Virus record (IMG/VR): IMGVR_UViG_3300025809_002164
Span: 82,037 to 146,036 of that record
Strand: one strand, 5' to 3'
DNA length: 64,000 nt
Source of the DNA: a virus
In this document: positions 18,254 through 63,648 of the stretch, piece after piece
How positions within the stretch are numbered: the first letter of the stretch is position 1
Layout of the letters: each line of letters starts with the position of its first letter
Made by a program: the position numbers and the translations under genes
Notes under the pieces: model-generated
The model's database searches: none
What the model was told of the DNA's origin: nothing
Seen by the model: only the letters and a program-made list of their open reading frames with translations

Positions 18254-18257
18254 ATTA

Positions 18258-22387: not shown

Positions 22388-22421
22388 ATTTATATATACA
22401 CTTTTTATATTTAGTTTTCAT

Positions 22422-28170: not shown

Positions 28171-28183
28171 ACCTTAATAAACA

Positions 28184-28214
28184 ATTACACCACAACCGGA
28201 GATTGTGGTGTAAT
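28184..28214 (-). terminator. Strong hairpin between tail genes, terminator or processing site
   Basis: ATTACACCACAA and TTGTGGTGTAAT form a perfect 12-bp stem around a 7-base loop (28196-28202). In the minus-strand direction the stem is followed by TGTTTATT, a weak U-tract, then AAGG and the next start codon. It lies directly after the probable major tail protein gene. Such a position fits partial termination or an RNA-stabilising hairpin that keeps major tail protein in excess of the downstream genes. Confidence 0.6.
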
Positions 28215-28253
28215 ATAATAAAATATATATACTTTATTTACATTCTTTTAAAA

Positions 28254-44900: not shown

Positions 44901-44904
44901 CTAA
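35950..44904 (+). CDS. Tape measure protein with embedded nuclease-like modules
   Basis: It is 2984 residues. Residues 40-400 are the conserved core (SRQGLSMEETLKRTNDALIL, GRGGAVIGNSFKTIF-like, VGGVFQINILKAAIKDLNAE), with a hydrophobic helix at about 415-440. Residues 546-1446 carry seven GLIPNF-type motifs around inserted modules. One (about 740-973) has D891 and E901-A-K903; another (about 980-1249) has E1087, D1134 and Q1155-I-K1157, both PD-(D/E)XK-like. Residues about 1480-1590 are hydrophobic, 1640-2390 mainly coiled coil. The end has the usual GG-rich GEYVV/GEFVI motifs. If wholly helical it would span roughly 450 nm, an upper bound. AAGG precedes the ATG. Confidence 0.93.
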   Translation: MSLGLRTHVIDLEQNINRIVRKVNAGGGIVVKVRASDFTQPLGRMSAKANEFTKSLEASNARVIAFGASAAIIGGVTLGFTQLVVQATKVEKILTDINVVLNTSTQNLEKFGNSLFKVARNTSQTLEVAAEAALEFSRQGLSMEETLKRTNDALILTRLTSLKAADSVKGLTAAVNGFADAGMTTAMVINKLSAVDIKFAVSTDDLINALSRAGAVAQDAGVSFDQLMGAVTSAQQITARGGAVIGNSFKTIFTRVQRGSTLQSLEDLGIAVRDIRGNTLPAMTVLQNLSSTYEKLGATTKAAVAEQVGGVFQINILKAAIKDLNAETSIYSQATKASSSATNEAYTKNAQLQKTLSSIANQTLTTVRELTANLGSLTIAPALQDFLSSANEVLGSFNKLFGDTEGESIGGDFAKGFARGLGSVLMGPGMMVAVLVFAKLFSQAFKFAKSSVKDLLQIQSIKEKEKAIQESIVDAMIKNVALSKELVKIDGDQVKQEQIVLALLKEQTAHIEQQRRIASDISPALRRAGVQPNLIVSKGSKHGSDGLIPNYSNTTPLERERERSGAQKGGYTAGAIAKMHVPKLGEVVYNKRESVRKFPGMQQPAIIPPISSKAGKKYQDNFSERHGFDPYGSSNNSTYNGGLIPNFASNTTEKSAIRAILDTLKKRKVKVLPNDPKLSFAANRYMEATKDREYPGGSVNFGKHKISMNEITLALKKHGNYMGDEDFYGNKAGGLIPNFALGASQLAGTNILKLPKAKMATQTTKSDFRGNRVKGWKNLEAPLDSIQKSAASYADEFNVLKGLGINVLQRKMFFTNKEDGGIRKSINTTDRKMAKSRGFQKNNRDNIAGSSYESGLYKNHLKDKGYNETWTGGYTPKGFQKGTGDPQSTVDFFKAGRLPIEAKYGKFTQANLIAKSIRLSSDRYIEDFLSSRGEGDIANNMANKKFQDASSTLSSLGHKNVDKSMVKKFGLSSGLVPNFMSIGLGPHMNSSDWLTSSLNLTRQNWDQGQNLKDGSFSDWVDFITKDRQIGVPLHYRDRPSKIDEIAQNKSNSKRARQAKILYNDYLKNFTNTNTKKIKMSKFGNVLEMALAQNFGKKPTSASYPMDFTHNPIHKLDGNPIVSRQTLGLNSQVGDAVVTSSGHEKNKFFSKILAHQIKSGSAVLGKRGKFPARIKNTGGYNDLIGHSGKTKLDKTVTNHTATGAQLTKKNGILGKYLNPKQSYKLDKYKKDFWSYDELGIKAGQAVSNSQGFIPNYLNTEEFGDTSTSAAQFNQNNGLDLQTALSGGKGFKLTKSNFQKVRQFLNSAEFRSLPAGIKTQLTNKLRIQSKFLKMGDVTRPYLKGKTSFPGRIAVSGGLIPNFSNPLAEAIGREKAALSSQGSTAKVYVDQDQRLKDTLNPMGLMVANRRDEPISGAQGVNRAINQGLNPKTHGSSNNSTYDSGLIPNFNSPVVTGTGGSVFAPGIKELDKAAKDTASKVKDHGKSSKEASGSGMDMMGAMFALTSVSYAVEGALGDVDSSAGALVKTLNAGIMGASQGVMVWQGLSSVGDSLIKKNTKMGKAMGVGTKILGGLGAAVGVLVPVFQALGENTSMLDGPFETLAKSVKETSKSIGALGNAITAHTDLESTRSEISQLNNSQDKNTYDGRMKLLTLQTKEAKNNSDLIKSAGELGKALNLTGADLMTMTSGTALGMEKLQENMLKYQQALAVETAMMQFTKGLGSGGFAGMFKQEGTDYERRAGQVGVAQQIASQSENPKQLDEQLKVFMKAFSTLKEDSQPLRDSVSTYQNVLAAGNKTGFGRSAGSLAMMANSAKNELGMGVDVSKITSTFESSVSKLPVAYQTLASQIIKNAQSMEIGDIESLLKGVESNARLLVKDSKKSAEQQVINYKYLRETTRLNRELANRTQLSLNQDKINLSLGKEKQGVLKSARAHNIKYLAALGATTKAATLESEMLEKSKQIDQDLMNKKTEINNKYKAEGIKYIDTLFNDKKNSLIDPVLTQSQGGKDSSGKSLSAEKTWEKSQKELQSRMIAASFNNKGIEEGGTQDPKLLKLKKDLGLAQNQERVSFLFKEYIHSLKDSVKQQEALNNFQKAKIIPEQIDLATFFSHSVNLKNQEIKTEEDSAKVKKINLDVVRAQLNMEKGTLSHAQKRLTDIKAIPYHQLDEVTKEQIDTNKTVAQADYEILRNKEIYLSFGEGLASLQSEQLEVERLRVKKESDSLNTQSKRLDAEEKLRKSTDDYKNIIRLKVENELKTLRNSTDDDITTLKEEKKQGAFGKRTEAGNSQLVRDEERAMLNHIEALKQGTYSLGALHSMAESTRSFEKALIEAKTKLENGGDFLEGQQGVILDTAHQKGGIEKLKGEKSVFNDRGATVRVAETDLKIAQAHKELNLTMGEGSLFADSMRVKIAEANVEMSRFGETMANTAFDATKEGFKGLIQDMGDGTKSLGDVAANFFGTIVDRMNEKLIDRAAGQLTAGLMEAAGFNQGGHVGFNQGGHVSRYSSGGTTRQVPAMLTSGEYVVQKRIVDRLGTNELNKINDSGSLEELYDKPNNESFSLLNEGGIASPPIIKLKEGGVAKNYLSGIVGTINKFMGGIVKMAGGGILSSSPDDSAGMKMAKGAGYLAGSSLHAYQNRGEGNQGPSAPKAPTALNTHSSLNIDPTGNRMSAKYKANDSYRQDYGKYLLDKYQHDVDTNNQKVKSRASTAQGIVNGIGFMGIGMAASAAGDYAKAGGFTKEGRMAMRAEKDAAEYAANPQAYAPPAKGSERMPYHTGGINFNSPGSANSNPAGIGGGVTNNVSNSTQAGNNYHTGGMNFNSSRSTQSNLNKVNDYSWTKNNNLSSGLKNPYQLNQGGMIKMSSGGKVHGPGGIDKVGPVMLDRGEFVIKSSSVNKIEKQSPGFFNRLNSMKMYEGGIVDPSAKAVASTTESGNTQNSSSNVTININVSSGGETSVSGGEAKQQAFASKIKEAVVGIISQEKRVGGMLSGN
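37585..40287 (+). repeat. Seven GLIPNF-type motifs bounding inserted modules
   Basis: Motifs G-(L/F)-(I/V)-P-N-(F/Y) occur at 37585, 37873, 38149, 38869, 39697, 40012 and 40270 (residues 546, 642, 734, 974, 1250, 1355, 1441). Two of them are also preceded by GSSNNSTY. The DNA under the motifs uses different codons, so it is protein-level conservation, not recent DNA duplication. Confidence 0.85.
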
Positions 44905-47992: not shown

Positions 47993-48862
47993 ATGGAAAA
48001 AACAATTCACGAAGAAATCTTCAAGCTAGAGCCTTCAACTTTAGTCACTCTTTATGAATTAGTATTAAAAGGTTTTGGAGAAAGCTACTATTTTCACTCT
48101 GGAGAAAACGGTTTCACTAATGAGATTATATTTAAGGGTAATAATTATAACTACATACCAATGAAGACTCATGGTTTTGACTCTACAGAGTCTCAGCTTC
48201 CAAGGCCTCGCATTACAGCAGATAACAGCGATTCGTTTTTTAGTCTCAAAACTAGATTCTTTAAAGATTTTATAGGATTTACCTTTAAAAGAACTCGAAC
48301 TTTTGTAAAATTTTTACATAAAGACAACTTTCCTGGCGGAGTTAATCCCCACGGTTCGGACACGGAAGTATCTTTCCCTGAAGAAAAATATATAATAAAC
48401 CAAAAAACCGTTGAAAATCAAAACATAATTGAGTTCGAATTGGTATCAGTTCTAGAAAAAGAGCAAGCTTTCATACCTAATAGAAAAATAGTATACAATA
48501 CATGCCAGTGGAAATACAGGCATAGTATAGGTTGTGGATATGCAGGAGCTCCTGTTAGCGACGCAAGGGGAAATCAGATAAACTTTACTCCAGCAGGACC
48601 ACCTCAAGAATTTGATGAATCAACCACATACAATTCAGGGAATTATGTTAAATTATCACCCGCACCTTTGTCCTCAGACCCAGATAGAGTTTTCGTTTGT
48701 GTGGTAAATGGAACTTTAGGCAAGAACCCGCAAAACGATAGAGACTCGTGGATCATGGACTCTTGCCCAAAAAACATAAGCGGCTGCAGGTCTAGATTTG
48801 GAGTAACAGAAACACTTAATGGACTACCTTTCGGAGGATTTCCTGGGACTTGGGAATACTAA
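47993..48862 (+). CDS. gpL-like minor tail protein with iron-sulfur cysteines
   Basis: This 289-residue protein follows lambda gpL: an N-terminal beta domain (LVTLYELVLKGFGESYYFHS, MKTHGFDSTESQLPRPRITA), EFELVSVLEKEQAFIPNRKI, then a four-cysteine C-terminal domain with C171 and C181 (NTCQWKYRHSIGCGYAG) and C258 and C265 (SCPKNISGCRSRFG). In lambda these ligate a 4Fe-4S cluster. Between the pairs an insert of about 55 residues resembles a CBM5/12 chitin-binding-type module (TTYNSGNYVKLS, VFVCVVNGTLGKNP). It adapts the tail tube to the tip and overlaps the gpK-like gene by 44 bases. Confidence 0.85.
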   Translation: MEKTIHEEIFKLEPSTLVTLYELVLKGFGESYYFHSGENGFTNEIIFKGNNYNYIPMKTHGFDSTESQLPRPRITADNSDSFFSLKTRFFKDFIGFTFKRTRTFVKFLHKDNFPGGVNPHGSDTEVSFPEEKYIINQKTVENQNIIEFELVSVLEKEQAFIPNRKIVYNTCQWKYRHSIGCGYAGAPVSDARGNQINFTPAGPPQEFDESTTYNSGNYVKLSPAPLSSDPDRVFVCVVNGTLGKNPQNDRDSWIMDSCPKNISGCRSRFGVTETLNGLPFGGFPGTWEY

Positions 48863-49568
48863 ACCCATCCGAAGCTGCCTTCGTTTCGCTTTAGAAAGTT
48901 GCGATAATGAGCGTTTTGGAATTTTCGTACACAAGGACAGTGATTACGATTATGAATTTATACCTATTGATAATTTAGATAAATCAAATCCAAATCATTT
49001 CAATATTAATAATAAATTATTTTATAATTACTATAAACAGTCAAAAGTTATATCTTTATTTCATACACATATAATTGACTCTCCAGAACCGAGTCCTATA
49101 GATATAGCTTTATCTCAATCTTTAAATCTACCTACTTATATATTGTCATGTTCGAGCAAGAAGAGCTCTCTGTACTACCCGCCTGTACACAATCGAGCAG
49201 AGCTGTATTCAAGGATATTCATACCTTTTTTTCAAGATTGCATTACATTTGTTAAAGATTTTTTATATTTAAAATTTAATATTAATTTAGTAGAACTTTT
49301 TAAAAATTGGGCCAGAAGATCTAAAGACTCAAACTCTTACTTAATTAACGAATTGGAAAAACATTTCAACGAAGTTAAAAAAACAGAATTAAAATACGGG
49401 GATGTGGTTATATTTAAACCCTCAATGACAAACTTATTTCATGCTGGAATAATTGACGAAAAACTAATGCTATCCCATCACCCAATGGGCTACCAACCTA
49501 CCAGCGAATTATTTACCCCTCAACTACTTAATAAGGTGTATAAAGTATATAGGAGTAAGGTTTTATGA
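48819..49568 (+). CDS. gpK-like tail-tip peptidase (JAMM + NlpC/P60)
   Basis: It is 249 residues. A JAMM/MPN+ metallopeptidase motif is intact: H82-x-H84, seven residues, S92-x-x-D95 (HTHIIDSPEPSPID). An NlpC/P60 domain follows with C141 as likely nucleophile (FFQDCITFVKDFL) and H208 (LFHAGIID). Lambda gpK has the same two-domain order and is required for tail assembly; NlpC/P60 domains cleave peptidoglycan peptides. No ATG lies closer to the conserved start than 48819, so the long overlap with the upstream gene appears real. It overlaps the I/J-like gene by four bases. Confidence 0.85.
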   Translation: MDYLSEDFLGLGNTKPIRSCLRFALESCDNERFGIFVHKDSDYDYEFIPIDNLDKSNPNHFNINNKLFYNYYKQSKVISLFHTHIIDSPEPSPIDIALSQSLNLPTYILSCSSKKSSLYYPPVHNRAELYSRIFIPFFQDCITFVKDFLYLKFNINLVELFKNWARRSKDSNSYLINELEKHFNEVKKTELKYGDVVIFKPSMTNLFHAGIIDEKLMLSHHPMGYQPTSELFTPQLLNKVYKVYRSKVL

Positions 49569-52500
49569 AGAGATTTATTTTATATGGAGAAATGGCTGAT
49601 CTATTTTGCAAAGAAATAGAATTAAGAGCTAGCACCATGAGGGAAGCTATAGAGGGTCTATCTGCCAATTTCCCTAAGTTTAGAAGTTATTTTATTAATA
49701 AATTAAATAAAGGGATCCATTATCATTTTGTATGTCCAGATAAAAACTCCATGGAAATGTACTGCCTGGACATGCCTTTAGCTGCAGACGAGTACGACAT
49801 ACTTCCATCCGTAGAAGGATCCGCAGCTGGTGCGACAGCATTTGCAGGAAATGCTTTACTTGGATACGGAATGTCCTGGCTTTCTGATAAATTAACCCCA
49901 AAGGAACCTCCTGAAAACGAAATAATTACAACCAACTCTTTCATATATTCAAACAACGAAAACAGGGCAGAGCAGGGCACACCAGTTCCCGTGGTATATG
50001 GACAACTAAGAGTCGGATCTAAAGTAATACATTCCAGCATTCATAACTATGATTACGATTATGACGCCGGAAGCATACACGAAGGCAAGCCAATCAACAC
50101 AAGACTATCTAGACTAATAGGAGGAGCTGACTATAATTTCATAAATCCGACAGATATAACAGATCTGAGAGCAGGAACTTCAGAAAGTTTTAAAGGCCTC
50201 AAAGATTCTGCCTCAGACATCACGAAGAGGTTTGCTGGAATAGGCATGTCAATGCATGCGGGGAATGGCACTAAAAACCTCAGCTCCAAATTGGAGAATG
50301 AAGCAATGAACGAAGTCTTTGAAAATAATAAAGATAGTTCGAATAAAAAGATGCATTTCGGACCTTCAGAAAATACCGCAACCCACACTGAGGCTAGAGA
50401 AGGCTGGTGGGATATCGGTGCATCAAAAAACGCAAGACCCTTTTTATATCCAATAGCGGGAAGCGTTGACATTAACATGAGGCCGGCAGGACCAACCACC
50501 TTATCTGTAGAAAGAGAGTCTAAAGCCGGATTAGTGCCTGTAAATATAGATGAAAAATGCTTATCGTTTGTAAGTCCAAGGGTCGTATCAACAGTAGGAA
50601 CCAGGACAGCTTACAATAAACTGGAATCTATAGGCATTCATAAATCTCTAGATATTATATCCGAAGGCCCAATTGCAGGCCTAGCTAACCCGATAACTGG
50701 CCTTGATGCAGACAACGGATTAGTTAATTACCCTTATTCTAAAGCAGACCCTGTTCGCTCTACAAGATCAGCATTAGTCCAAAATATTGATTATGCTAAC
50801 CTGCAGACACCAAACTTCCCCTTAGTTATCTCGAACGCGGGATCTGATTATCCAAATGGAGTATACAATAAAACGGGTAACGATCAGTCTGATCCAAGTT
50901 TTTTTATAACAATTAAAGGTCCATCTTCGCTAAAATCAGCAAGCATTCAAGATTCATCTTTCTATAAGGGAGACCAGAATAATGACGGCCTGCCAGATAA
51001 TACAGTTTTCTTCAAAAATAATATTGCAACCACTGAACCTTTATTCTTTTCAGACAATAGAATATTCTTACTCTCCTCGGGGGACGGTAGAATATGCCTA
51101 AACGACAACGATAACAATGCAATAAACGGTTCTCTACCTGCAGTATACACAACCGCTGAGAATCCAGGAGCCGGTGTCACGGGGGTTATTGATTTAGCTC
51201 AACTTGAATCTGACTCAAACATACTACCAGGATTTAATTCGAACTTTAAAATAGGAAAAGGCTACGGTTCTCCACCTGCAGGCCTAACATACAACATCTC
51301 TCCCCACAACGAGAGCTTGGAGTATGATGTAGAAATTGAAAAACTTTCGAGTTCTAAAAGGATATCAAACTCGGAAGTGATGGATTATGGTTACTTTTTT
51401 TTAGACAGAGAATCAAATCCCACTTTTCAAAACGAATTTAATGCTGTCCACAATTCTACAGCTCCGATCATCCCTAGGACGAATTTAAATTGGTCAGCCT
51501 CAGTAAGGAATTCTATTTATTCAACGGCATTTAATGCAAATTCAAGTATAACCATAGTGGTTGGAACTTGGAGGCAGAATTTGCGATTTGGCAGCCGAAT
51601 AAACAACGTTAGCCTTACTATAACTATGCAGCAATACATAGATTGCAGTAATGTTACTGCATCCAATACCAATGCAACGGCAACAGCGACACCTGGTTTT
51701 AATTCATGGAATAATGATCAAGCCTCTATTACGAATGAATTTCAAAATTTAGTCACAGGATCAGCCGTTCCTCTAGGTTTTTTACTGCGAAATGCAGCCT
51801 TCGCAAACACCGTTTTTAATCAATTTAACTCTCAAGCTGGCAACACATTAACGTCAATAACTATTCCCGCCGTAACTATAACGAGAGCTCAGAGTATTCA
51901 ATCCGGCGGAGGAAGGTACTTAAAGTTCGGTCCAGGCTCAGGAAGCAATACAGCAAGCGGGACAACAGCTGCAGGGTGGACCACTCCGTCGCACATGCTA
52001 GAAGTAGGTAATAATAATTTCGCCACTGTATCTATAATGAGCGATGGAGCAATACCTGAAGATTTAAGCCCAACTCCTAGAGGCTTTTATTGCCCAATGC
52101 TACACCCAAGAATAACAGTGTTTGTCCTAAGAAAGACAACAGGCTCAACGGGATCATCATTCAGGTTTCTACCTACTAATATTGATGCTGTAGCTACAAT
52201 TTCGGCCACAGGAACGGTTTCAAGTGTGAACCTTCTGAGGGTTCCGGATCTACCCGTTTACGAGTCGACATTTAATGGTGGAGACTGGACTCCTATTTTA
52301 GTCAATAGTTCGACAGATACACCTGTAGTTCTTTTTCCTAATTCGCCAGATTTTTCGTACCAAGATTTAGGATACTATTGCCAAATTGATCCTAGTAATG
52401 CCGCCATCAGTGCGGACTTCGAAATTGACAACGGAACATTAACTCATGATGCTATAGCGGGAAGTAGGAGACATTTATGCACTATGGAGGCCAACTGGAA

Positions 52501-55500
52501 CAACCATATATCGAGAAACAGAATCACTCCAGGTAGGACACAACATGGAGCCGGAATGTTCCCCTCTATATTAAACAATGCATCTATACTTTCGGCAACC
52601 CCCACTATAGCTTTCAATATTGAAGCTGGTAATAAATTCAACACCCCTACAGCTACAGCTCAAGCTCAAGTTACAGTCGAAAGCATAAACCTTACGGGTG
52701 CGGATTTTTTAATCAATGCCCTTACAAACCCTACATTAGGTGCGGCATCCACCATAATATGCACAGGAAGGCCAGCCTCACTTACTGTGCTAAATGCCGG
52801 AATAGGTTATACTTTCAAATCAGGAAACGCAAACGGCTCCAGAATATCTCAAGATATATATAATTTCCAATACGGAATCAAAAAATTCGATCTTAAAAAT
52901 ACAGGAAATAAGGGGTACAAACCTGATCAGACCTTTTATGCATATGGAGTAAGCAGAACTAAGAATTTCGCCGCAGCAACAGCCAATCCCAATAATGCTA
53001 TATATAACTCATGCAAGCTTAAAATTTCGACAGACAATGCCGGTTCTATCTCTGACATAGAAATTTTGGATCCAGGATTTGGTTTTTCTACAGTACTTGA
53101 TCCAGATGATTTTATATTTTCTAACGACTCTCAATTTTTTAATAATCCTCCGGATGCCGCATTTTTAGCAGGAAGCTCGACTGAGTTCATAGACCCGGCT
53201 ATTCACTTTTTGAAGCAAGATCTTATCGTATCAGTAGCCAACAATCATCTTAATATTCTTAATAATGAAGGCTCAATCAGTAAGTTCTACATAAGCCAGG
53301 AAGGGTTAGGATTCAATCGATTTCAAGACATCTTTAACCCTTTTTCGAGCATCTCCTTTAATCCTCCAGTTTTTCAAATAACTATAGTCAACGGAAGCAT
53401 TGCCTCTATCCTCGTACAAAACCCTGGATCTGGATACTCAAACTTAGACTCGTCTATAAAAATAAAAATTTCAGACCCTCCTACATTTGCCCTGCCTCAA
53501 GTTAACAATGCAGCCATAGATCCCGATTCATGGGCTAGATCTATATATCTAAACGATGTTCCAATGAGAGACAAGAATGGAATGTTTAACTTTTCTAAAT
53601 TTCACTTCGATACAAGAATAGGTCACGGAAAAAACGGACTAGGTGAGAGCAATTTAATTCCAAGCCAGGTCGACCTTATCGCCACCAAATCGAGACCCAA
53701 TATGATAAGTTCTGAATTCAAGCTGCCCTCGTATACTAAAGTGATTGATTATCCTCTATATGGGCCCAGGAATGAAAATGAAAAGGACTACTACTACGCC
53801 CACACGATCAAAAACCCAGAAGTCTCTGTGATAGGAATTTCTATCAACATTAAAGAGCTTCACTATATTTATGAAGGAGATGAAGCTGCTGTTTATGTAA
53901 ACTTGATCCCATTGATGATGGCTGGAGTTGGTTTTATGGCTGCAAAAGCAATGAAGGACGCAATTTCAGCAGCCTTCATACAAGACCCAATATCGCTATA
54001 CTCAAAAGGAATGGGTTCTGGTACTGGAGTAGGGGCCTGCATGGGAGCCCCGATAGCCACTCAGAATCGAGACGGCGGACAGGGAATGGGTACGACCGTC
54101 GCAAAAGTTGGAGAAATGGCTAAATCGGCAATAATGGCCGGAATAGGTGCCGCGATTCTCGGAGGAGCGGCTGGAATGGTATTAACTTATTTACTGGTTA
54201 AAATATTTCCTTGTAGTAAAATTCCCTGGCTATGCTTTAAAATTGGAGAAATAATCAAGAATAGTGGAGAGATCTGGCCCGCGAAAGTAAGAATAGCTAT
54301 AGAGTATGGAGTCGAGGGAGAGACTCTTGAAAAAGATGTAATCTCATTCAACGGCTGTGCTACCAACGAATATGTAAAAGATGTATTGATTGAAAACCTC
54401 CCCAAAGCCGAAGGCTCTAGCAATAACTTTAAAAATAGGATTGTAAAAGTCTACAGAACAACTCGTAGCTTGGACCCAATCTCTGGAGGTATAGTTGAGG
54501 CTAGATATAAAATTCAAACATCACTACACTCGATAACAGAATACGTCGAAGGCTTTTTTAGTTACCCAAATACAGCGATAATAGGAACTAGAGTAAATTC
54601 AAAAGATTTTCCACAACAACCCAAAAAAGAATTTTTAATAAAAGGCCGAATGATCAGAGTGCCGCATAACTATAACCCCTCAATTGGAACGTACAATGGG
54701 GACTGGGACGGAAACTGGAAATACATAGACTCGAACGCTGATAATCTAGCTCAGACTAGCGAAATTTTGCTAGAATGGACAAGTAATCCAGCATGGATAA
54801 TTTTCGACCTATTAACTAACGAGAGATACGGGATGGGAAAATATGGAATAAAAGAATCAGATATTGATGCCTGGTCTTTTTATACTTTTTCAAAGTTTTG
54901 CGATGAGAAGGTCGATGTAGTTATAGATGGAGTTAAGTCAAGTGAGCGCAGGCATATGTGCAACCTTTATATAGACTCAGAACGTCAAGCATACGATTAC
55001 ATAAAAGACTTGATGTATATTTATAACTCCTCAATTAGTTTTAACGGGGGGAAAATATACATAACTACAGATTCATCTGTCTTAGGGAAAAATGAATCGA
55101 TAATGATATTTAACAATTCAAATGTAGATGAGTCTGGCTTTTCTTATTCTAGTACTCCTGAGACTTCAAGGATCACTTCTGCGACTGTAGATTACCTAGA
55201 CGAAAGAGATAATTACATGCAAAAAAGCGAATACGTAGAAGATGGCGAAGGAGTTAAAGAGCACGGATACTCTCACATAAAAATAGCAGGAATGGGAGTA
55301 ACAAGGAGGGGAGAGGCTCACCGCCTGGCTTGGCATAAAATTTTAACAAAGCAATTAGAAAAAGAAATAATACAATTCAAAACTGGACTCCAAGGATCAT
55401 ACTTAAGGATTGGCGACGTTATAGATGTAGTTGATAATCATAAGATAGAAAAACATTCAGGAGGTAGAATTACCAGGATCGTTTCGGCCACAGAGATTGA

Positions 55501-55915
55501 AATCGATATCCCTGCAGCAGCCATAGCTTCTTCAGCCCTACTTCTTGAAGTGCCCAGCCCATCTGATTCAGATTCCGATACTATAGATTCCTCTAATATA
55601 CTCAATCGCAGATCCAGCCAATTCAAAGAGTATTCTATATCTATAAAGCAAAATTTTTCAATCACATTCTCTTCACCCATAGATCCAGAAATCGTGAAAG
55701 GCTTAATATGGATCATTAAAGAAGATGCCGCAAGTGAAATATCTCCAAAAAAATATCGAGTGAAGGAGATTAAAGAGTCTTCCTCCATGAACTTCGAAAT
55801 TATTGGCACAGAATATCTGGAAGGTAAATACGAGCAAATAGACAAAAGCTCTTCATCTAAAGATGGTATTCTCCTCGAAGAGAGGGAGTATTATGGGCAC
55901 AACATAATAGTATAG
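49565..55915 (+). CDS. Fused gpI-gpJ-like central tail-tip protein
   Basis: It is 2116 residues. Residues 1-170 match lambda gpI (FILYGEMADLFCKEIELRAS, NRAEQGTPVPVVYGQLRVGS). J begins near residue 355 (SLDIISEGPIAGL), is interrupted by an insertion of roughly 940 beta-rich residues, and resumes at about 1323 (ARSIYLNDVPMRDKNG). A second, hydrophobic insertion lies at about 1447-1560. J proper continues with FFSYPNTAIIGTRVNSKDFP, VPHNYNPSIGTYNGDWDGNW and FDLLTNERYGMGKYGIKESD. It ends where lambda J turns to FN3 domains. It is the baseplate hub and host-recognition platform. AAGG lies upstream of the ATG. Confidence 0.9.
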   Translation: MKRFILYGEMADLFCKEIELRASTMREAIEGLSANFPKFRSYFINKLNKGIHYHFVCPDKNSMEMYCLDMPLAADEYDILPSVEGSAAGATAFAGNALLGYGMSWLSDKLTPKEPPENEIITTNSFIYSNNENRAEQGTPVPVVYGQLRVGSKVIHSSIHNYDYDYDAGSIHEGKPINTRLSRLIGGADYNFINPTDITDLRAGTSESFKGLKDSASDITKRFAGIGMSMHAGNGTKNLSSKLENEAMNEVFENNKDSSNKKMHFGPSENTATHTEAREGWWDIGASKNARPFLYPIAGSVDINMRPAGPTTLSVERESKAGLVPVNIDEKCLSFVSPRVVSTVGTRTAYNKLESIGIHKSLDIISEGPIAGLANPITGLDADNGLVNYPYSKADPVRSTRSALVQNIDYANLQTPNFPLVISNAGSDYPNGVYNKTGNDQSDPSFFITIKGPSSLKSASIQDSSFYKGDQNNDGLPDNTVFFKNNIATTEPLFFSDNRIFLLSSGDGRICLNDNDNNAINGSLPAVYTTAENPGAGVTGVIDLAQLESDSNILPGFNSNFKIGKGYGSPPAGLTYNISPHNESLEYDVEIEKLSSSKRISNSEVMDYGYFFLDRESNPTFQNEFNAVHNSTAPIIPRTNLNWSASVRNSIYSTAFNANSSITIVVGTWRQNLRFGSRINNVSLTITMQQYIDCSNVTASNTNATATATPGFNSWNNDQASITNEFQNLVTGSAVPLGFLLRNAAFANTVFNQFNSQAGNTLTSITIPAVTITRAQSIQSGGGRYLKFGPGSGSNTASGTTAAGWTTPSHMLEVGNNNFATVSIMSDGAIPEDLSPTPRGFYCPMLHPRITVFVLRKTTGSTGSSFRFLPTNIDAVATISATGTVSSVNLLRVPDLPVYESTFNGGDWTPILVNSSTDTPVVLFPNSPDFSYQDLGYYCQIDPSNAAISADFEIDNGTLTHDAIAGSRRHLCTMEANWNNHISRNRITPGRTQHGAGMFPSILNNASILSATPTIAFNIEAGNKFNTPTATAQAQVTVESINLTGADFLINALTNPTLGAASTIICTGRPASLTVLNAGIGYTFKSGNANGSRISQDIYNFQYGIKKFDLKNTGNKGYKPDQTFYAYGVSRTKNFAAATANPNNAIYNSCKLKISTDNAGSISDIEILDPGFGFSTVLDPDDFIFSNDSQFFNNPPDAAFLAGSSTEFIDPAIHFLKQDLIVSVANNHLNILNNEGSISKFYISQEGLGFNRFQDIFNPFSSISFNPPVFQITIVNGSIASILVQNPGSGYSNLDSSIKIKISDPPTFALPQVNNAAIDPDSWARSIYLNDVPMRDKNGMFNFSKFHFDTRIGHGKNGLGESNLIPSQVDLIATKSRPNMISSEFKLPSYTKVIDYPLYGPRNENEKDYYYAHTIKNPEVSVIGISINIKELHYIYEGDEAAVYVNLIPLMMAGVGFMAAKAMKDAISAAFIQDPISLYSKGMGSGTGVGACMGAPIATQNRDGGQGMGTTVAKVGEMAKSAIMAGIGAAILGGAAGMVLTYLLVKIFPCSKIPWLCFKIGEIIKNSGEIWPAKVRIAIEYGVEGETLEKDVISFNGCATNEYVKDVLIENLPKAEGSSNNFKNRIVKVYRTTRSLDPISGGIVEARYKIQTSLHSITEYVEGFFSYPNTAIIGTRVNSKDFPQQPKKEFLIKGRMIRVPHNYNPSIGTYNGDWDGNWKYIDSNADNLAQTSEILLEWTSNPAWIIFDLLTNERYGMGKYGIKESDIDAWSFYTFSKFCDEKVDVVIDGVKSSERRHMCNLYIDSERQAYDYIKDLMYIYNSSISFNGGKIYITTDSSVLGKNESIMIFNNSNVDESGFSYSSTPETSRITSATVDYLDERDNYMQKSEYVEDGEGVKEHGYSHIKIAGMGVTRRGEAHRLAWHKILTKQLEKEIIQFKTGLQGSYLRIGDVIDVVDNHKIEKHSGGRITRIVSATEIEIDIPAAAIASSALLLEVPSPSDSDSDTIDSSNILNRRSSQFKEYSISIKQNFSITFSSPIDPEIVKGLIWIIKEDAASEISPKKYRVKEIKESSSMNFEIIGTEYLEGKYEQIDKSSSSKDGILLEEREYYGHNIIV

Positions 55916-55922
55916 TTTATTT

Positions 55923-58793
55923 ATGACCGTGCTACCTAAAACCGGAATATTGGATTTTTCATGGAACAACATTCCTGATGTAGACGGATACTATGCAAGG
56001 ATGAGTAAAAATGGATTATTGATTGACACTTTCAATACTTCACTCAACTACTTATCTATAAATAAACTGTCGGAGTCTGACTACGTGCAAGGGGTAGTTT
56101 ATCCATACATTGGAGACAATATTTATCCAACTGGCATTGAGCTTCAAAAACAAAGCATGCCAATAACAAATTTCCACGAACAAGGAAAGACTTTTGAATT
56201 TAATTCAATAAAAATAGACGGCCTTGAAGTTCCTCTGGTTAAAACGTCAAGCGGTTATTACAGCACAGGAGAATATCAGAACGGTAATGCTAATATTACA
56301 TTCGAATTAACTAATCCAAGAGACTCAAAAGTCTTAACCCATCCGCTTCAAGAGCCGTTTCTTGATAAAATAGAGTACGAAACTTCAAGCACAACTAACG
56401 AATTAAGCAATTTCTCATTTTCGTTTCTTAATGAATCGACTGTAAGCTCGAGTCAGGAGCCTGATTTGGGAATATTCAATGAAGGTATTACGTTTAACGA
56501 AAATGGAGGTTTCACTACCAATACGATACTAGGCCAAGACGGAGTATTCAGTAGTGAATACATCTCTGATGACTCACAATTTAAAATTACATTTGTGGAG
56601 GCAGGCCAACCAATAGAAGCCAAAGCGGCAATCACTTTAATACATGTTGATAGTGGCTGGACTCTAGATCTTGGAGAGTACAGTTTTGATGGTATATCAA
56701 GCACCATGCCACTAAGTTCCGACCTTGGGTTTATGCCTAACGAAGGTGGTATTATTATGGGAAATTTCGATAAAATAAGTTTACTTTACTATCCACCTTT
56801 CGGAGAGGAAGTTTCTCAAGAAATCTCAAGAAATATCGACTTAAAAATTAAGGCATACGATATACTGGGATCAGGAATTACCGGAAATATCACATTGCTG
56901 AATGAACCCGTATCAATAAACGGGATACATATGCAGTCTCAACCTTACGATGTTCCCGGCTCGGGACTGTTCAATATAATCCCCAGCTTCGACTTAAGGC
57001 CCAGTTCAATTAAATATGTTCTTCTAAATAAGGACAAGACTTCACATATAGTTAGCGGTCACTCAATAGATGTAGACAATTTTCAAATAACTATCCCACT
57101 AAGAGAGTCAGGATACTTATCACTAACTCCTTACGACTGGCTCGGATCCGGATCCACGTTTAATCGTCTCGAGCCAATCTTCATAGAGGAACCTTCCTTA
57201 ATTGATAGTAATAAAATCACAAACTTTGAGTCTAACCTGTCGGACTCACACTTAAATATTGACTGCAATTATAAAGCAAATAATGAAATTGGAAGCTTTT
57301 TTGAATACTCCGTCGACTCCACAGACACTTCGTCTTTTTCCTTAAACTCTTATTTAACCGGCCAGTCGGAATCCTTAGTACAACTATCCTTCGATCATTT
57401 CTCGCAAAGAACGGGCATTCACACCGATTTTTACATATCCTTAAATCTATACAGAAGTGGGTCGAGAACTCTGGATGATTCTGCGAAATCCATAATAAAA
57501 ATACCTAAACCAAAAATATCAAAAGCTGATCTTAATTTTGACCACTATAATGGTAGTTATTCTGCAGAATTAGAATCAACCCCCAGCTTTACATTTTCAG
57601 GATTAGAATTACTCATCTCCACAGGAGAAAGCTCAAGCTTTGAAGTTTCTCCTGAAGGGCTCATAGAGATGTCGGGATCATCGGCATATATTCATTCTAA
57701 ACTGGTAAACTCTCACGACAACTCATTGATTTATGATGAGAGCTTATTAACAGGTAAGGGCTTGACTCCCTCTATTGATGTCTCAACATACACACCGACT
57801 GAACTAGATGGTAGTAATTTTTTCTTTTTCAGCAATTCCGACGGAATACCAATAAATGAAATTAAAGTTCACAGAAAAGAATCTTTTTACCTAACTAGTG
57901 GAAACTTAAATGCGACCATGTCTGGGCTACAGCAATTTGAAGATTATGACAATTTTCATACAAATTCTTCAAATTTAGGATTATACTCAGACTCGGCTCC
58001 ACCAAGTATAAAGAGAGCTTCAGAATTTTCAACAACTGGCATTAATTTTTCAGGGTATTACAGCTCAGGTAGGGAGTACATTTATAGATTCACCCCGATA
58101 GGAGCCTTCGGTTCTGGATCAACTACTGACCCCATCATCAAAGCCTTCACTCAAAACGAAATAAGCGTGTCAAGTGAATCTAGTTTAATTGTCGCAGAAA
58201 AGCAAATAGAATCAATACAACATACAACAGTATTTACTAGCGGCAATCAAGATATTTTTGGGGAAAAAACATTCTTAGAAAATATATCCACAATCAACCC
58301 AACAGAGCCCGACCATGCGGCAACCAAAGAGTACACAGACGGACTGCTCCAGCAATACCCTGTAATGCCGCCGTCAATTAGGGATACATTCAGTCAGATT
58401 AATACAGGAGTTAATAAAATAACCGGATCCAAGCTTTACTTGACTAATATATTATATGACGGCTTTATCTTCATAAATGGTCATAGTGGAGACTACTCGC
58501 TTAATTCATTTTTTTATCCAATAGAATGCACTGGATTACAGGCTCAAAACTCAGGGCAACTTTCTTATTTTTCTGGAGAATCAATCGATAGTTCAATTCC
58601 GAGCCCGTCACCCTCTTCGACCCCTACTGTCACACCAACTCAGACCCCCACGACGACACCAACTCCGACCTTAACTCAAACACCAAGCATGACTCCGTCC
58701 AGGACTCCAGGGGCTCAAGTTGCAATGTACGAAAAATGCCTACCCACACCGACCGCAACTCCAACCATAACACCATCTTTAAGTCAAAATTAA
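55923..58793 (+). CDS. J C-terminal/tail-fibre-like protein with Thr/Pro tail
   Basis: It is 956 residues and starts seven bases after the hub gene in another frame. Residues 1-90 (LDFSWNNIPDVDGYYARMSK) are FN3-like, as in the part of lambda J that is absent upstream, so J appears split in two. Many beta domains follow. Residues about 780-815 have SGNQDIFGEKTFLENISTIN and HAATKEYTDGLL, a signature of phage tail fibres. Residues about 895-956 are a Thr/Pro stretch containing [16 protein letters not shown], almost identical to a segment of the 1180-residue adhesin-like protein. Probably the receptor-binding spike. Confidence 0.75.
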   Translation: MTVLPKTGILDFSWNNIPDVDGYYARMSKNGLLIDTFNTSLNYLSINKLSESDYVQGVVYPYIGDNIYPTGIELQKQSMPITNFHEQGKTFEFNSIKIDGLEVPLVKTSSGYYSTGEYQNGNANITFELTNPRDSKVLTHPLQEPFLDKIEYETSSTTNELSNFSFSFLNESTVSSSQEPDLGIFNEGITFNENGGFTTNTILGQDGVFSSEYISDDSQFKITFVEAGQPIEAKAAITLIHVDSGWTLDLGEYSFDGISSTMPLSSDLGFMPNEGGIIMGNFDKISLLYYPPFGEEVSQEISRNIDLKIKAYDILGSGITGNITLLNEPVSINGIHMQSQPYDVPGSGLFNIIPSFDLRPSSIKYVLLNKDKTSHIVSGHSIDVDNFQITIPLRESGYLSLTPYDWLGSGSTFNRLEPIFIEEPSLIDSNKITNFESNLSDSHLNIDCNYKANNEIGSFFEYSVDSTDTSSFSLNSYLTGQSESLVQLSFDHFSQRTGIHTDFYISLNLYRSGSRTLDDSAKSIIKIPKPKISKADLNFDHYNGSYSAELESTPSFTFSGLELLISTGESSSFEVSPEGLIEMSGSSAYIHSKLVNSHDNSLIYDESLLTGKGLTPSIDVSTYTPTELDGSNFFFFSNSDGIPINEIKVHRKESFYLTSGNLNATMSGLQQFEDYDNFHTNSSNLGLYSDSAPPSIKRASEFSTTGINFSGYYSSGREYIYRFTPIGAFGSGSTTDPIIKAFTQNEISVSSESSLIVAEKQIESIQHTTVFTSGNQDIFGEKTFLENISTINPTEPDHAATKEYTDGLLQQYPVMPPSIRDTFSQINTGVNKITGSKLYLTNILYDGFIFINGHSGDYSLNSFFYPIECTGLQAQNSGQLSYFSGESIDSSIPSPSPSSTPTVTPTQTPTTTPTPTLTQTPSMTPSRTPGAQVAMYEKCLPTPTATPTITPSLSQN
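58590..58790 (+). repeat. Degenerate Thr/Pro-coding tail
   Basis: The last 65 or so codons are Thr/Pro/Ser-rich without the strict 18-bp DNA period of the minus-strand arrays. The only rightward gene with this composition is the fibre-like protein. Confidence 0.75.
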
Positions 58794-59202: not shown

Positions 59203-60273
59203 ATGAATATACTATTAACTGCCTCTTTTGCTAACGGCCTATTTTGTAATGGACTTCAGCAAAACATTGTCTTCCTAGCCGAAATGTTAAAAGACATGAA
59301 CTACAATGTAGCTATCTGCATAAATCATCCTATCAGCGAGTGTAGCGATCCTCCAACTGGAATCTTAATAATGGAAGAGGATGAAATAGATTCTGAATTT
59401 AATCCTGACTTTGTTCTTCAAACTGGATTTGTATTAAGAGACTCTACGATTGATGGAATAAAAAATAAAAATCATAGATGCAAAAACATTCATGTTCATT
59501 ACGGAAACAGAATGCTAGCAGATATAGAGCAGTGCAAGTGGGATACTATGGCGATCACCGACCACAAAGTCGATGAAATTTGGGTCTCCCCTCATTATGA
59601 AATCTCAATACCATACTTTAAGGCATTCTACCACACTCAGAAGGTTCACATTATACCTTATATTTGGAGCCCTAAGTATATAGACATTCATAGATCTATA
59701 TACATAAAACGAGGAAAGGATTGTAAATACATCCCAGGTCAAGAAAAAAACATTGCAATAGTTGAGCCTAATTTAAACATGACAAAAAACTGCTTGCCTG
59801 CAATACTTATAGCCGAGGAGTTAATTCAAGACCAGCCTGACTTGTTTAATAAACTTTATGTGTATTGCTCTAGCTCGATAATGGAAAAGAGATATTTTAG
59901 AGGGTGGATGTGGAACTTAGATTTACCAAAGCTCGGTAAAGTTCAATTCTCAGGAAGAAATAAAATCTCAGACATCTTTGCGAACGATGCGAATGTCGTC
60001 ATCTCTCACCACTTAATGAATGCTTTAAATTACACTCATTTAGAATCTATATATTTAGATATACCCTTAGTGCATAACTCTGAATACATGAAAGACTCCG
60101 GGTACTATTACCCAGATTACGATATACAGAAGGGAGCGTCAAGATTAATGGAAGCCTTAACTTATCACGATGAAAGCCTTGACGAATATAGAAAAAAAGC
60201 TAAATCGACATTGCATCGTTTCTCGCCAGACAACGAGCTAGTGAGAGCTAAATACCGACTACTGTTCTTATGA
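59203..60273 (+). CDS. DUF2827-type glycosyltransferase, copy 1
   Basis: It is 356 residues and follows the DUF2827 pattern: NGLFCNGLQQNIVFLAEMLK near the start, VDEIWVSPHYEISIPYFKAF, then VHIIPYIWSPKYIDIH, NIAIVEPNLNMTKNCLPAIL, SHHLMNALNYTHLESIYLDI, and PLVHNSEYMKDSGYYYPDYD near the end. The family is GT-B-like and usually found in polysaccharide gene clusters. It stands in tandem with a paralogue and overlaps it by four bases. The substrate is unknown. Confidence 0.75.
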   Translation: MNILLTASFANGLFCNGLQQNIVFLAEMLKDMNYNVAICINHPISECSDPPTGILIMEEDEIDSEFNPDFVLQTGFVLRDSTIDGIKNKNHRCKNIHVHYGNRMLADIEQCKWDTMAITDHKVDEIWVSPHYEISIPYFKAFYHTQKVHIIPYIWSPKYIDIHRSIYIKRGKDCKYIPGQEKNIAIVEPNLNMTKNCLPAILIAEELIQDQPDLFNKLYVYCSSSIMEKRYFRGWMWNLDLPKLGKVQFSGRNKISDIFANDANVVISHHLMNALNYTHLESIYLDIPLVHNSEYMKDSGYYYPDYDIQKGASRLMEALTYHDESLDEYRKKAKSTLHRFSPDNELVRAKYRLLFL

Positions 60274-61370
60274 AAATAGGAATTACAATAGACATGTCTA
60301 AAGCTTTCTGGGTCAACGGAATGCAACAAAACATCGTATTTCTACACGAGCTACTAAAGCAGGAGGCAAGCAATGACGTCTACTACATAACTCCCGAGAA
60401 ACCAAAGCACATTTTAAATAAAAAGCATAAAGGTATAATTCTTGAAGATCTACTATCTGACCCATTATTTAATTTCGATGTATTAATTGTAGCGGGAATA
60501 GACTTGCTTCCCGAGCATTACGAAAAGCTCAAATTAAGGAATTCAGATTTAAAAATAATTTTAGTTCATTTCGGAAACAAACTAATGGACGACATTCACT
60601 TTAGTGTATCTGAAAAAAATCCAACAAGACTGCCAATAATGAGGCCAAAATATTTATCTCAAGTATGGATCTCCCCTCATCATAAATTCGCAAAAGAGTA
60701 TATAAAGGCTTACTACAATTTAGAAAATGTACAAGTCTGCCCCTACATCTGGGATCCATTCTTGCTTGAGTCAGAAGTTAATAAGCTTAAGAAGAAAAGT
60801 TTATCCCCATTCTTTAATGGCGGTAAGTCTAGGAATATATGTATATTTGAACCAAATATATCTCATATTAAAAACTGCATAATACCATTAATGATATGCG
60901 AAAAGTTCGAGCAAAGAAATCCAGATCAAATAGAGTCAATAAATAGTTTTTCCTGTGAAGATTTAAGGGAAAATAAATACTTCAAAAAGTTGATGTCCAA
61001 CCTAGATATAGTAAACAAGGGAGACTTGTGTTTCTTTAATAATAGATGGGGGAGTTTAAATGCATTGAGTAGATTTGGAAAAACTATAATATCTCACCAA
61101 ATAAACAACGAGTTAAACTATTCACATCTCGAAGCTTTATATATGGGGCTACCCTTGATTCATAACTCTCCAGAGCTTCAAGAATTTGGTTACTACTATC
61201 CAGATTTTGATATATCTATGGGAGCCAACCAATTAATGAGCTCATTCCTTAACCATGAAGAGACACTGCAGGATTATATGTTTCATTCTAGAGAATTTCT
61301 TAAAAAGTATAGCCCTAAGAATGATTTAAATATTTACAAATACTGTAAGCTTATAAATGAAATTAAATAA
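60270..61370 (+). CDS. DUF2827-type glycosyltransferase, copy 2
   Basis: This 366-residue paralogue of the upstream gene has the same ordered motifs (WVNGMQQNIVFLHELLKQ, LSQVWISPHHKFAKEYIKAY, VCPYIWDPFLLES, EPNISHIKNCIIPLMICEKF, LNYSHLEALYMGLPLIHNSP, FGYYYPDFDISMGANQL). The two copies have diverged widely, so they probably transfer different sugars or act at successive positions. It overlaps the following triple glycosyltransferase gene by 14 bases, indicating one operon. Confidence 0.75.
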   Translation: MKIGITIDMSKAFWVNGMQQNIVFLHELLKQEASNDVYYITPEKPKHILNKKHKGIILEDLLSDPLFNFDVLIVAGIDLLPEHYEKLKLRNSDLKIILVHFGNKLMDDIHFSVSEKNPTRLPIMRPKYLSQVWISPHHKFAKEYIKAYYNLENVQVCPYIWDPFLLESEVNKLKKKSLSPFFNGGKSRNICIFEPNISHIKNCIIPLMICEKFEQRNPDQIESINSFSCEDLRENKYFKKLMSNLDIVNKGDLCFFNNRWGSLNALSRFGKTIISHQINNELNYSHLEALYMGLPLIHNSPELQEFGYYYPDFDISMGANQLMSSFLNHEETLQDYMFHSREFLKKYSPKNDLNIYKYCKLINEIK

Positions 61371-63648
61371 AATAGATAAATCTTACTTTATTAATTTAAA
61401 TAGAAGGACCGACAGGCTTAATCATATATACAAAACTCTACCATTTTATGCGAATAAATCTCAAGCAGTAGATTCAAGAACTTTAAACTTAACAGATGAA
61501 GTCCTCGAGCTATTTCCAGAAACATATCACTCGCTATCTAAGCCCGAAATCTGCTGTGCATTGAGCCATTATAAGCTTTGGCAACAATTAATTCTAGATG
61601 AAAAATGTGAAAGTTATTTAATAATGGAAGATGATGTAGTCTTTTCTCCAGGGTTCGCGAACTTCTGGAATAAAGCTTTCTCAGAGCACATACCTCTAGA
61701 CTTTTCTCTTATATACTTAGGGGGCTGTCAACCTTGGAATAAAAGTCAATACAATAAAGTCCTCAAGTCTAGAAATAAATACTTCAACAATATCAAGGAA
61801 AATAATTTCTTTTCTAAGGGTGATTATTACTGGCACATGAATGCATCTTCGTATATAATAAGTAAAAAAGCAGCTACTCAATTATGTAATGAAGTAAGCA
61901 AATCGGGAATCAATTCAGCGATTGATCTATTTATGATCAATACAATTAACTCTATTGACGATAAATCTTTATACCATCTTCACCCCTTAATGTCCCACCA
62001 AATACATGAAGAAGGCAATAACTCAGGACCGGACACAAATTCCGACATCAGGGAAAGTGTTGATAAATTTAATAAAATTCAAAAACAAGATTCAATTAAA
62101 AATCAAATTTTTCCTAATTTAAAACCTATATCATCAAGTGAAATACCAAAAAAGATTCACTTGTCTTGGAGTAATAAAAATATATTAGATTCAGACTACA
62201 GCTTAATTAATAAAGGAGCGAAGCAGTTGGAACTACTTAATCCTAATTGGGACATTGAGGTTTATGATGACGAGGATATAAATCGCTTACTACGAGACTC
62301 AATTGGCATAGATAATTGGAACTTAATAAAAGATAAAAAAATTACTGAAAAAACAGATCTCTGGAGATTAATTAAAACATACAAAGAGGGTGGCCTGTAT
62401 GTGGATATTGACAGATATATAGACACTCCACTGTCAGAGATAATGAATGATAAAACTTCTTGTGTTCTACCTACATATAAAGATATTGACTTTTCTCAAG
62501 ATTTCGTTTTAACCTGCCCGAAGAACCCAATTATTGGGCAGGCAATTGTTAATAATTTAAAATACAGAAAGCAAGGCAAGTCTTTATTTTTTATTGCCGT
62601 CTATTCATACATCGAGTCTGTTAGTGGTGTATTAGGTCGCAAGATTATAGATAGAATAGATAGGCCTGATTACTTCAATAAAGTAAGGTCAGACATTAGT
62701 CAATGTCCGTACCTCGAAACTTATAGGGAAACAGGGCCCGACAATCATGCCTTATTTAGAAACATCAATAACAACTTCAATATTGAGAACTTTAATAATG
62801 ACAAGGCCGATCTTTACAATTCTTCAGGAGTCCCCCATTGGAATGCCGACACTAGAAGCCAGTTCGTGAGCTCTAAACTAAAAAAAGAATCCTCAATTAA
62901 ACTAAAGCAAGAAGAATTTATAAATATAAAAGATAGTCTAGCCTCTTTTGTGGATTATGATATATTTAATCATTTTAGTAAAAATTTAAAACATAAAAAA
63001 ACTACTAATGATAAATTTAGCACATTTAATCCAGGTAAAAAGATAGCAATAGTAAGCTTATATACTCCTGACACTTCAGATTACTCTAAGCATTCAGAGG
63101 AAAGCATTAAGCAATATTGCTTCCTTCAAGGGTACACATTTCATATGTATAGAGACTCAATCAAGAAAGACTGCAGCCCTAATTGGTCAAAAGCTCAAGC
63201 TGTGCTCAATCACATCCTGGATCACGATTATATAATGTGGATGGATTCAGACACATTAATATTCAATCCTAACAAAAGAATAGAAAGTATAATAGATAAA
63301 TGTACAAAAATGAAGCAAATTATAGCCTGCAAGGATATAGGGGTTAACGGATCAATGATTAATTCTGGAGTTATAATTTTTAAAAATCATAATTATACGG
63401 TAAACATACTCAAAAGGTGGAACAATTACAACGGAGATAAATCGAGCCTGTATTCTGATGGTGGAGATCAAGAAGTTCTATGTTCTATTATTAAAAAGTC
63501 TGATCCATTTAAATATAATATAAAAATATTCCCCATGAACGAGTTTAATACCGAGCCTAGACTTGTAGATAAAGATACATTTATATTACACTTTATGGCT
63601 TTCCCCGAAAAGCTCAAGATATGCTTAATGAGCTATTGGAATTGCTGA
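61357..63648 (+). CDS. Triple glycosyltransferase: GT25 + GT32 + GT34-like
   Basis: It is 763 residues. Residues 1-250 are GT25 (YFINLNRRTDRLNHIYKTL, EICCALSHYKLWQQLI, YLIMEDDVVFSPGF with the EDD motif). Residues about 258-500 are GT32/DXD type (IPKKIHLSWSNKNILDSDYS, EKTDLWRLIKTYKEGGLYVD with D-I-D). Residues about 560-763 resemble GT34/GMA12-MNN10 (IAIVSLYTPDTSDYSKHSEE, LDHDYIMWMDSDTLIFNP with D-S-D, GSMINSGVIIFKNHNYTVN, GGDQEVLCSIIKKS). Each domain keeps its metal motif, so all could be active. A chain able to add three sugars in series is the natural reading. Confidence 0.8.
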   Translation: MKLNKIDKSYFINLNRRTDRLNHIYKTLPFYANKSQAVDSRTLNLTDEVLELFPETYHSLSKPEICCALSHYKLWQQLILDEKCESYLIMEDDVVFSPGFANFWNKAFSEHIPLDFSLIYLGGCQPWNKSQYNKVLKSRNKYFNNIKENNFFSKGDYYWHMNASSYIISKKAATQLCNEVSKSGINSAIDLFMINTINSIDDKSLYHLHPLMSHQIHEEGNNSGPDTNSDIRESVDKFNKIQKQDSIKNQIFPNLKPISSSEIPKKIHLSWSNKNILDSDYSLINKGAKQLELLNPNWDIEVYDDEDINRLLRDSIGIDNWNLIKDKKITEKTDLWRLIKTYKEGGLYVDIDRYIDTPLSEIMNDKTSCVLPTYKDIDFSQDFVLTCPKNPIIGQAIVNNLKYRKQGKSLFFIAVYSYIESVSGVLGRKIIDRIDRPDYFNKVRSDISQCPYLETYRETGPDNHALFRNINNNFNIENFNNDKADLYNSSGVPHWNADTRSQFVSSKLKKESSIKLKQEEFINIKDSLASFVDYDIFNHFSKNLKHKKTTNDKFSTFNPGKKIAIVSLYTPDTSDYSKHSEESIKQYCFLQGYTFHMYRDSIKKDCSPNWSKAQAVLNHILDHDYIMWMDSDTLIFNPNKRIESIIDKCTKMKQIIACKDIGVNGSMINSGVIIFKNHNYTVNILKRWNNYNGDKSSLYSDGGDQEVLCSIIKKSDPFKYNIKIFPMNEFNTEPRLVDKDTFILHFMAFPEKLKICLMSYWNC

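What the first reader, a model, noticed from the sequence alone, without database searches (positions are those of the whole stretch)
49565..58793. Tail-tip hub is rearranged: gpI fused to J, J split before its FN3 domains, and about 940 residues inserted
The order of recognisable lambda segments is I, start of J (SLDIISEGPI), a long foreign beta-rich block, core of J (FFSYPNTAIIG..., RYGMG), then a stop. The FN3 and fibre part starts as a separate gene seven bases on, in a different frame. The insertion lies early in J, where it would project from the hub.
Basis: partly seen in the sequence, partly recalled or inferred. Interest (0 to 1): 0.62.

Follow-up and report, generated by a model that had tools for sequence, protein, structure and literature searches.

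The report
Marine phage hub with giant insert
In a family of uncultured marine phages the core protein of the tail tip has absorbed its plug protein and grown two inserts, one huge and one membrane-like, that change together between sister phages, which suggests that host recognition and membrane entry are built into the hub itself.

Summary
ORF 49565-55915 (2116 aa) is a gpI-like domain, a linker, the start of J, a 940-aa insert (aa 381-1320), then J hub domains and a stop. A separate gene starts 7 nt on in another frame. In the 21 hubs of this clade read from gpI into J, the fusion and the insert (910-2135 aa) are always present; a separate downstream gene follows in the 16 non-window loci that show the junction. 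Hubs reach 3777 and 5109 aa.

It is also fixed. A sister clade shares the fusion and the hydrophobic insert but carries a different ~290-aa insert in the next loop.

Between sister phages 96% identical over ~14 kb, divergence is concentrated in two patches: the middle of the giant insert and the loop of the hydrophobic insert. The downstream fibre gene is 97% identical. The sister clade repeats the pattern.

Best reading: a lambda-type hub that works like a GTA/roseophage 'megatron', with a recognition module grafted on the hub. Binding and membrane insertion are inferred, not shown. New variant of a known kind.

The parts
47993..48862 (+). gpL homologue (supplies hub domain HDI in lambda)
   Evidence: PF05100 Phage_tail_L 4.7e-35; phrog_18 7e-58
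48819..49568 (+). gpK-like tail peptidase (JAB + NlpC/P60)
   Evidence: phrog_30 4.6e-22; weak NLPC_P60 and Prok-JAB, below Pfam cut-offs
49565..55915 (+). Fused gpI-gpJ tail hub, 2116 aa
49565..50059 (+). gpI-like domain, aa 1-165 (plug/tripod protein of lambda)
   Evidence: phrog_32 9e-19, phrog_4554; PDB 8iyk_I 2.9e-12
50060..50629 (+). Linker, aa 166-355, between gpI and J start; clade-specific
   Evidence: pairwise identity 29%; 160-202 aa in full-length relatives
50618..50704 (+). J start (KLESIGIHKSLDIISEGPIAGLANPITG), aa 352-380
50705..53524 (+). Giant insert, aa 381-1320, beta-rich
   Evidence: AlphaFold2 of aa 355-1440: mean pLDDT 75, 809 of 1086 residues >=70; no Pfam hit for the window, no PHROG, PDB-sequence or PDB-fold match
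51491..52417 (+). Hypervariable patch 1 of the insert (window aa ~643-951, by projection from L006/L008)
53525..53884 (+). J resumes: HDII-insertion domain and first strands of FNIII-A, aa 1321-1440
   Evidence: register to lambda J 42-74
53885..54262 (+). Hydrophobic insert, aa 1441-1566; predicted helices aa ~1448-1471 and 1517-1547 inside FNIII-A
   Evidence: PF24801 FNIII-A_GpJ matched only from after the insert
53972..54169 (+). Hypervariable patch 2, loop of the hydrophobic insert (window aa ~1470-1535, by projection)
54263..55912 (+). J core (rest of FNIII-A/HDII, HDIII, HDIV), aa 1567-2116
   Evidence: phrog_31 1.6e-102; PF13550 7e-16; Foldseek to lambda gpJ 8k35 E 6e-39
55913..55915 (+). 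Stop codon ending J after its hub domains
55923..58793 (+). Separate downstream gene, 956 aa, putative central fibre with Thr/Pro-rich C-terminus; FN3 identity unproven
   Evidence: synteny in relatives; no FN3 match

Best explanation
This is the tail-tip hub of a lambda-type siphophage. The plug protein gpI is covalently joined to the N-terminus of J, and J carries two lineage-fixed inserts in its HDII-insertion/FNIII-A region. The giant beta-rich insert is a host-recognition (adhesin) module held at the rim of the trimeric hub rather than on the end of a fibre. The hydrophobic helical hairpin is the membrane-active element that lambda keeps in gpI. On contact the insert recognises a surface structure; the HDII domains swing out as in lambda and T5; the joined gpI part unplugs the tube; and the hairpins enter the outer membrane around the DNA channel. 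Shown by sequence: fusion, both inserts, early end of J, fixation in the clade, linked hypervariability, and the shift of hydrophobicity. Inferred: receptor binding, placement on the trimer, membrane insertion, order of events.
For: gpI+J in one frame in all 21 distinct window-clade hubs read from gpI into J. Insert of 910-2135 aa at one site. The hub model matches lambda gpJ, T5 pb3 and RcGTA by fold. Separate gpIs have a hydrophobic peak in 25/25 and separate J N-terminal parts in 0/23; in this clade the peaks lie in the J insert of 21/21 hubs, while gpI keeps one in 2/21. In L006/L008, 65% of all differences fall in two patches covering 19% of the hub (8-fold enrichment); synonymous changes there are near saturation, against ~0.1 over most of the rest; flanks are 96% identical and the fibre gene 97%. 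The sister clade L053/L054/L055, with a different insert, shows the same two-patch pattern. Literature: the gpI helices H1/H2 of lambda are proposed to cross the outer membrane and HDII-ins2 sets the narrowest part of the opened hub (PMC11101478); T5 pb3 corresponds to gpL+gpI+gpJ in one chain (PMC10721106); RcGTA and R4C megatrons join a penetration domain to a hub with a large peripheral domain (PMC7296036, PMC10276861).
Against: No direct evidence of binding. The insert has no PDB fold match at E<=1e-3, and the weak CBM5/12 matches are confined to L017 and L021. The hub model is only pLDDT 61, with low values in parts of the inserts. Hydrophobic helices might serve packing or channel closure rather than membrane entry. 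In the sister clade an upstream tail gene also varies strongly (57.9%), so the hub is not the only variable tail gene there. A fibre gene still follows J and might hold the main receptor-binding tip.
Confidence: 0.6

Rival explanations
1. The insert is a structural collar or docking platform for side fibres and has no direct role in recognition; its variation follows the fibres that dock on it.
For: R4C/RcGTA megatrons bind fibres through a dedicated domain (PMC10276861, PMC7296036). Other large unannotated genes lie in the window at 11185-29876 and could encode such fibres.
Against: In L006/L008 the other shared tail genes seen on the contigs are about 97-100% identical while only the two hub patches are replaced. 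The fibre-type genes at 11185-29876 are not on those contigs, so this is not excluded.
Confidence: 0.2
2. The insert is a surface-polysaccharide-binding or -degrading element used for capsule passage, not the specific trigger receptor (overlaps in part with the best explanation).
For: Weak CBM5/12 matches in the inserts of L017 and L021; carbohydrate-binding domain in the R4C megatron (PMC10276861); glycosyltransferase-type genes next to the hub.
Against: No enzyme family or fold match in the window's own insert.
Confidence: 0.35
3. Artefact: misassembly or a frameshift error created the fusion, insert and split.
Against: The same gene at 100% in two other metagenome contigs and the same architecture in 20 divergent relatives.
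Confidence: 0.01
4. The insert is a removable element (intein-like or cleaved out), so that the mature hub is an ordinary J.
For: It is a clean insertion in a conserved motif region.
Against: No Pfam hit of any kind in the window insert; length varies from 910 to 2135 aa; the sister clade places a different insert in another loop. Proteolysis cannot be excluded from sequence.
Confidence: 0.04

Closest known systems
Lambda gpI + gpJ (PDB 8iyk, 8k35, 8xcg)
   Same: J core E 3e-62 and gpI E 3e-12 by profile; gene order L-K-I-J; gpL separate
   Different: I and J fused; 940-aa insert at lambda J ~41; ~126-aa hydrophobic insert within FNIII-A; J ends after the hub domains, without its fibre part
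RcGTA g15 / roseophage R4C gp16 'megatron'
   Same: Order hub (L-like), peptidase, then penetration element joined to a J-like hub with a large peripheral domain; separate fibre gene (PMC7296036, PMC10276861)
   Different: Weak structural match only (6tba E 6e-6, 8gtc E 1e-3); no match of the insert to the megatron peripheral domain; gpI-like domain is lambda-type; extra hydrophobic insert within FNIII-A
T5 pb3 baseplate hub protein
   Same: Plug and HDII-HDIV in one chain (PMC10721106); fold match 7zhj E 2e-11; fibre (pb4) in a separate gene
   Different: HDI is still in a separate gpL gene; T5 plug becomes a beta-hairpin leg (PMC10038345), not a hydrophobic helical pair
Salmonella phage Jersey hub
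   Same: Extra domain on the J N-terminal region proposed as the antireceptor; J lacks a C-terminal receptor-binding part (PMC13243795)
   Different: Single Ig-like domain there; not compared by sequence here
Nearest cultured J proteins: Pseudomonas phage ZQG1, Rhizobium phage RHph_I4
   Same: ~27-29% identity over the J core
   Different: Separate tail assembly (I) gene and J gene; no database match to either insert

Membership tests
Lambda-type tail hub (gpJ family) | J hub core (HDII-HDIV) homologous to lambda gpJ | tested here: met
   phrog_31 1.6e-102; 8iyk_J 3e-62; Foldseek 8k35 6e-39
Lambda-type tail hub (gpJ family) | gpI present | tested here: met
   phrog_32 9e-19; 8iyk_I, but fused to J
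Lambda-type tail hub (gpJ family) | I and J encoded separately | tested here: not met
   single 2116-aa ORF, conserved
Lambda-type tail hub (gpJ family) | J continues into FNIII-1/2, helical shaft, fibre and RBD | tested here: not met
   stop after the hub domains; next gene shows no FN3 match
RcGTA/R4C megatron | N-terminal penetration/plug element joined to the hub | tested here: met
   gpI-like N-terminus in frame with J
RcGTA/R4C megatron | Homologous peripheral domain | tested here: not met
   no match of the insert in PDB by fold or sequence
T5 pb3 | HDI in the same chain | tested here: not met
   separate gpL gene 47993-48862
Receptor-binding protein | Binds a host receptor | not testable with these tools
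   only indirect: linked hypervariability

The most novel reading that the evidence does not exclude
Receptor recognition and outer-membrane penetration are both built into the body of the hub as two coupled modules that are exchanged together between sister phages, so that host range is set by the hub and not by a tail fibre; expansions of this hub reach 5109 residues.
Probability: 0.4. Interest if true: 0.7.

Novelty: new variant of a known kind. Interest (0 to 1): 0.52.

Why it matters
Tail-tip structures so far place host recognition mostly on fibres or C-terminal tips. Here a clade of uncultured marine phages keeps a normal lambda hub core but puts its fast-changing sequence in two inserts of the hub. 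This gives a testable case of recognition directly wired to the gate, a natural series of hubs linking the three-chain lambda type with the one-chain T5 and GTA types, and a sequence marker (two patches) that could be tested as a predictor of host range in marine viromes.

Tried and rejected
Frameshift or assembly error: rejected. Intein or other removable element: no family match, variable length, different loop in the sister clade. Known fold for the insert: no PDB match at E<=1e-3; BFVD gave three weak matches with E<=1e-3 but probability <=0.41, the best a Synechococcus phage structural protein. Diversity by point mutation only: rejected for L006/L008, since synonymous sites are near saturation in patch 1, which points to allele replacement; in L009/L010 patch 2 shows mostly amino-acid changes at low dS. 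Insert alone as bait found only the 100% copies. FN3 identity of the next gene: not significant. Relatives in bacterial or archaeal genomes: none. Terminase (Terminase_6N/6C) and photosystem gene in the record: none, so host and taxon remain unknown. A vWA-like stretch in the same loop of L098 was seen by eye but not confirmed by Pfam.

Full report
OBSERVATION. The ORF 49565-55915 encodes 2116 aa. Its first 165 residues are a lambda gpI (phrog_32, phrog_4554; PDB 8iyk_I). J begins around aa 352 and holds SEGPI at 366. Residues 381-1320 match no Pfam, PHROG or PDB sequence. From aa 1321 the J sequence resumes in register with lambda J residue ~42, and apart from the hydrophobic insert described next it runs to aa ~2100 as an ordinary J hub core (phrog_31 1.6e-102; PF13550). 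The stop is followed 7 nt later by a 956-aa gene in another frame.

WHAT WAS MISSED. A second insert, aa 1441-1566, sits inside the J domain called FNIII-A or HDII-ins2. Pfam's FNIII-A_GpJ model matches only from just after it (for the sister clade, for this one). AlphaFold2 predicts two long helices there (aa ~1448-1471 and 1517-1547) between beta strands. Both overlap strongly hydrophobic stretches.

NOT AN ERROR. Two other metagenome contigs carry the gene at 100%. Twenty further distinct hubs, 34-51% identical, have the same order. The first insert is 910-2135 aa long, the hydrophobic one 104-137 aa. In the 16 loci other than the window and identical copies where the junction is visible, a separate gene follows J; in 15 of them an ATG lies -4 to +15 nt from the stop, and in L007 the next frame is open but has no nearby ATG. 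Two members have hubs of 3777 and 5109 aa because, besides longer inserts, J is extended at its C-terminus by Thr/Pro-rich stretches and other domains, one with a weak Calx-beta match. Retrieval used motifs near the inserts, so 'all' means all that were found. A search with gpI and J-start motifs alone gave the same result for every relative aligned over the whole gpI-linker-J-start region at 34% or more, as far as each contig reaches.

EVOLUTION. Ten loci from a sister clade (L048-L057) also have I fused to J and the hydrophobic insert, but only some 35-50 aa at the giant-insert site; instead they carry ~290 aa in the next loop, between LYGPR and the equivalent of EKDYY (read from the sequences). 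A tree of the J core puts both fused groups together against J proteins with separate gpI (100/97), but it is midpoint-rooted and has long branches. So fusion and hydrophobic insert are most simply shared by both clades, while the big inserts arose separately. Separate gpIs have a hydrophobic peak in 25 of 25 and the N-terminal parts of separate J proteins in 0 of 23; in the window's clade 21 of 21 hubs have it in the J insert and 2 of 21 in gpI, and the six distinct sister-clade hubs listed have both. This looks like relocation of the hydrophobic element from gpI into J.

VARIABILITY. L006 and L008 share about 14 kb at 96% nucleotide identity outside the patches. In their hubs 65% of the differences fall in two patches, L006 aa 641-953 and 1474-1540, covering 19% of the columns. 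Synonymous divergence in patch 1 reaches saturation in places, against about 0.1 over most of the rest (a short stretch at 2021-2080 is also raised, 0.72), which points to exchange of alleles. An independent contig, L062, supports the L006 allele of patch 1 at 99.6%. The downstream fibre protein is 96.8% identical. L009/L010 differ mostly in the same two regions; the first is only partly covered because L010 starts there. In the sister clade L053/L054 differ in their own insert and in the hydrophobic insert (66% of differences in 24% of columns), and L053/L055 show the same more weakly. The patch borders were chosen after looking, so the binomial p-values are descriptive. In the sister clade an upstream tail gene also varies (57.9%).

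STRUCTURE. The hub model (pLDDT 61) finds lambda gpJ first (8k35, E 6e-39), then T1, Sf11, T5 pb3 and RcGTA. The insert model (pLDDT 75) is beta-rich and confident over most of its length, but has no PDB match at E<=1e-3 and only weak similarity to predicted phage proteins, the best a cyanophage structural protein.

MECHANISM. In lambda the gpI tripod plugs the tube and its two hydrophobic helices are proposed to enter the outer membrane, while HDII-ins1 and HDII-ins2 move on opening (PMC11101478, PMC10721106). In RcGTA and the roseophage R4C a penetration element is joined to the N-terminus of a J-like 'megatron' that also carries a large peripheral domain (PMC7296036, PMC10276861). The present hub has the same logic with different parts. 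I therefore propose that the giant insert recognises the host surface and that the hydrophobic hairpin enters the membrane. The linked change of the two patches suggests that they act together. These functions are inferred.

MEMBERSHIP. It is a member of the lambda-type hub family by its J core and gpI domain. It fails two lambda features (separate I and J; J continuing into the fibre). It works like a megatron, but its insert is not a megatron peripheral domain by any match found here.

SCORE. The architecture is a new variant of a known kind. The linked hypervariability makes it more interesting than a size oddity, but binding and membrane entry are untested.

Noticed in passing
window 35950-44904: Tape measure protein of 2984 aa, which would imply a very long tail (roughly 0.45 micrometre at 1.5 angstrom per residue, my estimate).
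   Followed up: partly
window 11185-29876, minus strand: Run of eight large ORFs (540-1180 aa); the three scanned in one library each show no clear family except a weak Calx-beta domain in 22422-25964. Possible side-fibre or adhesin genes.
   Followed up: partly
window 59203-63648: Two DUF2827 genes and a 763-aa protein with several glycosyltransferase domains shortly after the fibre gene; start motifs of the DUF2827 genes recur beside the hub in L006, L007, L008, L010 and L024.
   Followed up: partly
L099-L104: Two tandem gpI-like genes; in L103 and L104, where J is reached, its core begins only at residue ~1370 of the J frame, so J is expanded there too, in a different region.
   Followed up: no
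L107:1881-5204: Von Willebrand factor A domain (Pfam VWA_2 3.8e-13) with DTSGSMSG motif inside the J core.
   Followed up: no
L098:10471-18003: About 390 aa with a vWA-like look (by eye, not confirmed by Pfam) between SEGPI and the next J motif, the same site as the window's giant insert.
   Followed up: partly
L027:4184-19516 and L021:9995-21331: Hub proteins of 5109 and 3777 aa with Thr/Pro-rich C-terminal extensions.
   Followed up: partly
window 58600-58793: Thr/Pro-rich low-complexity end of the downstream fibre protein.
   Followed up: no
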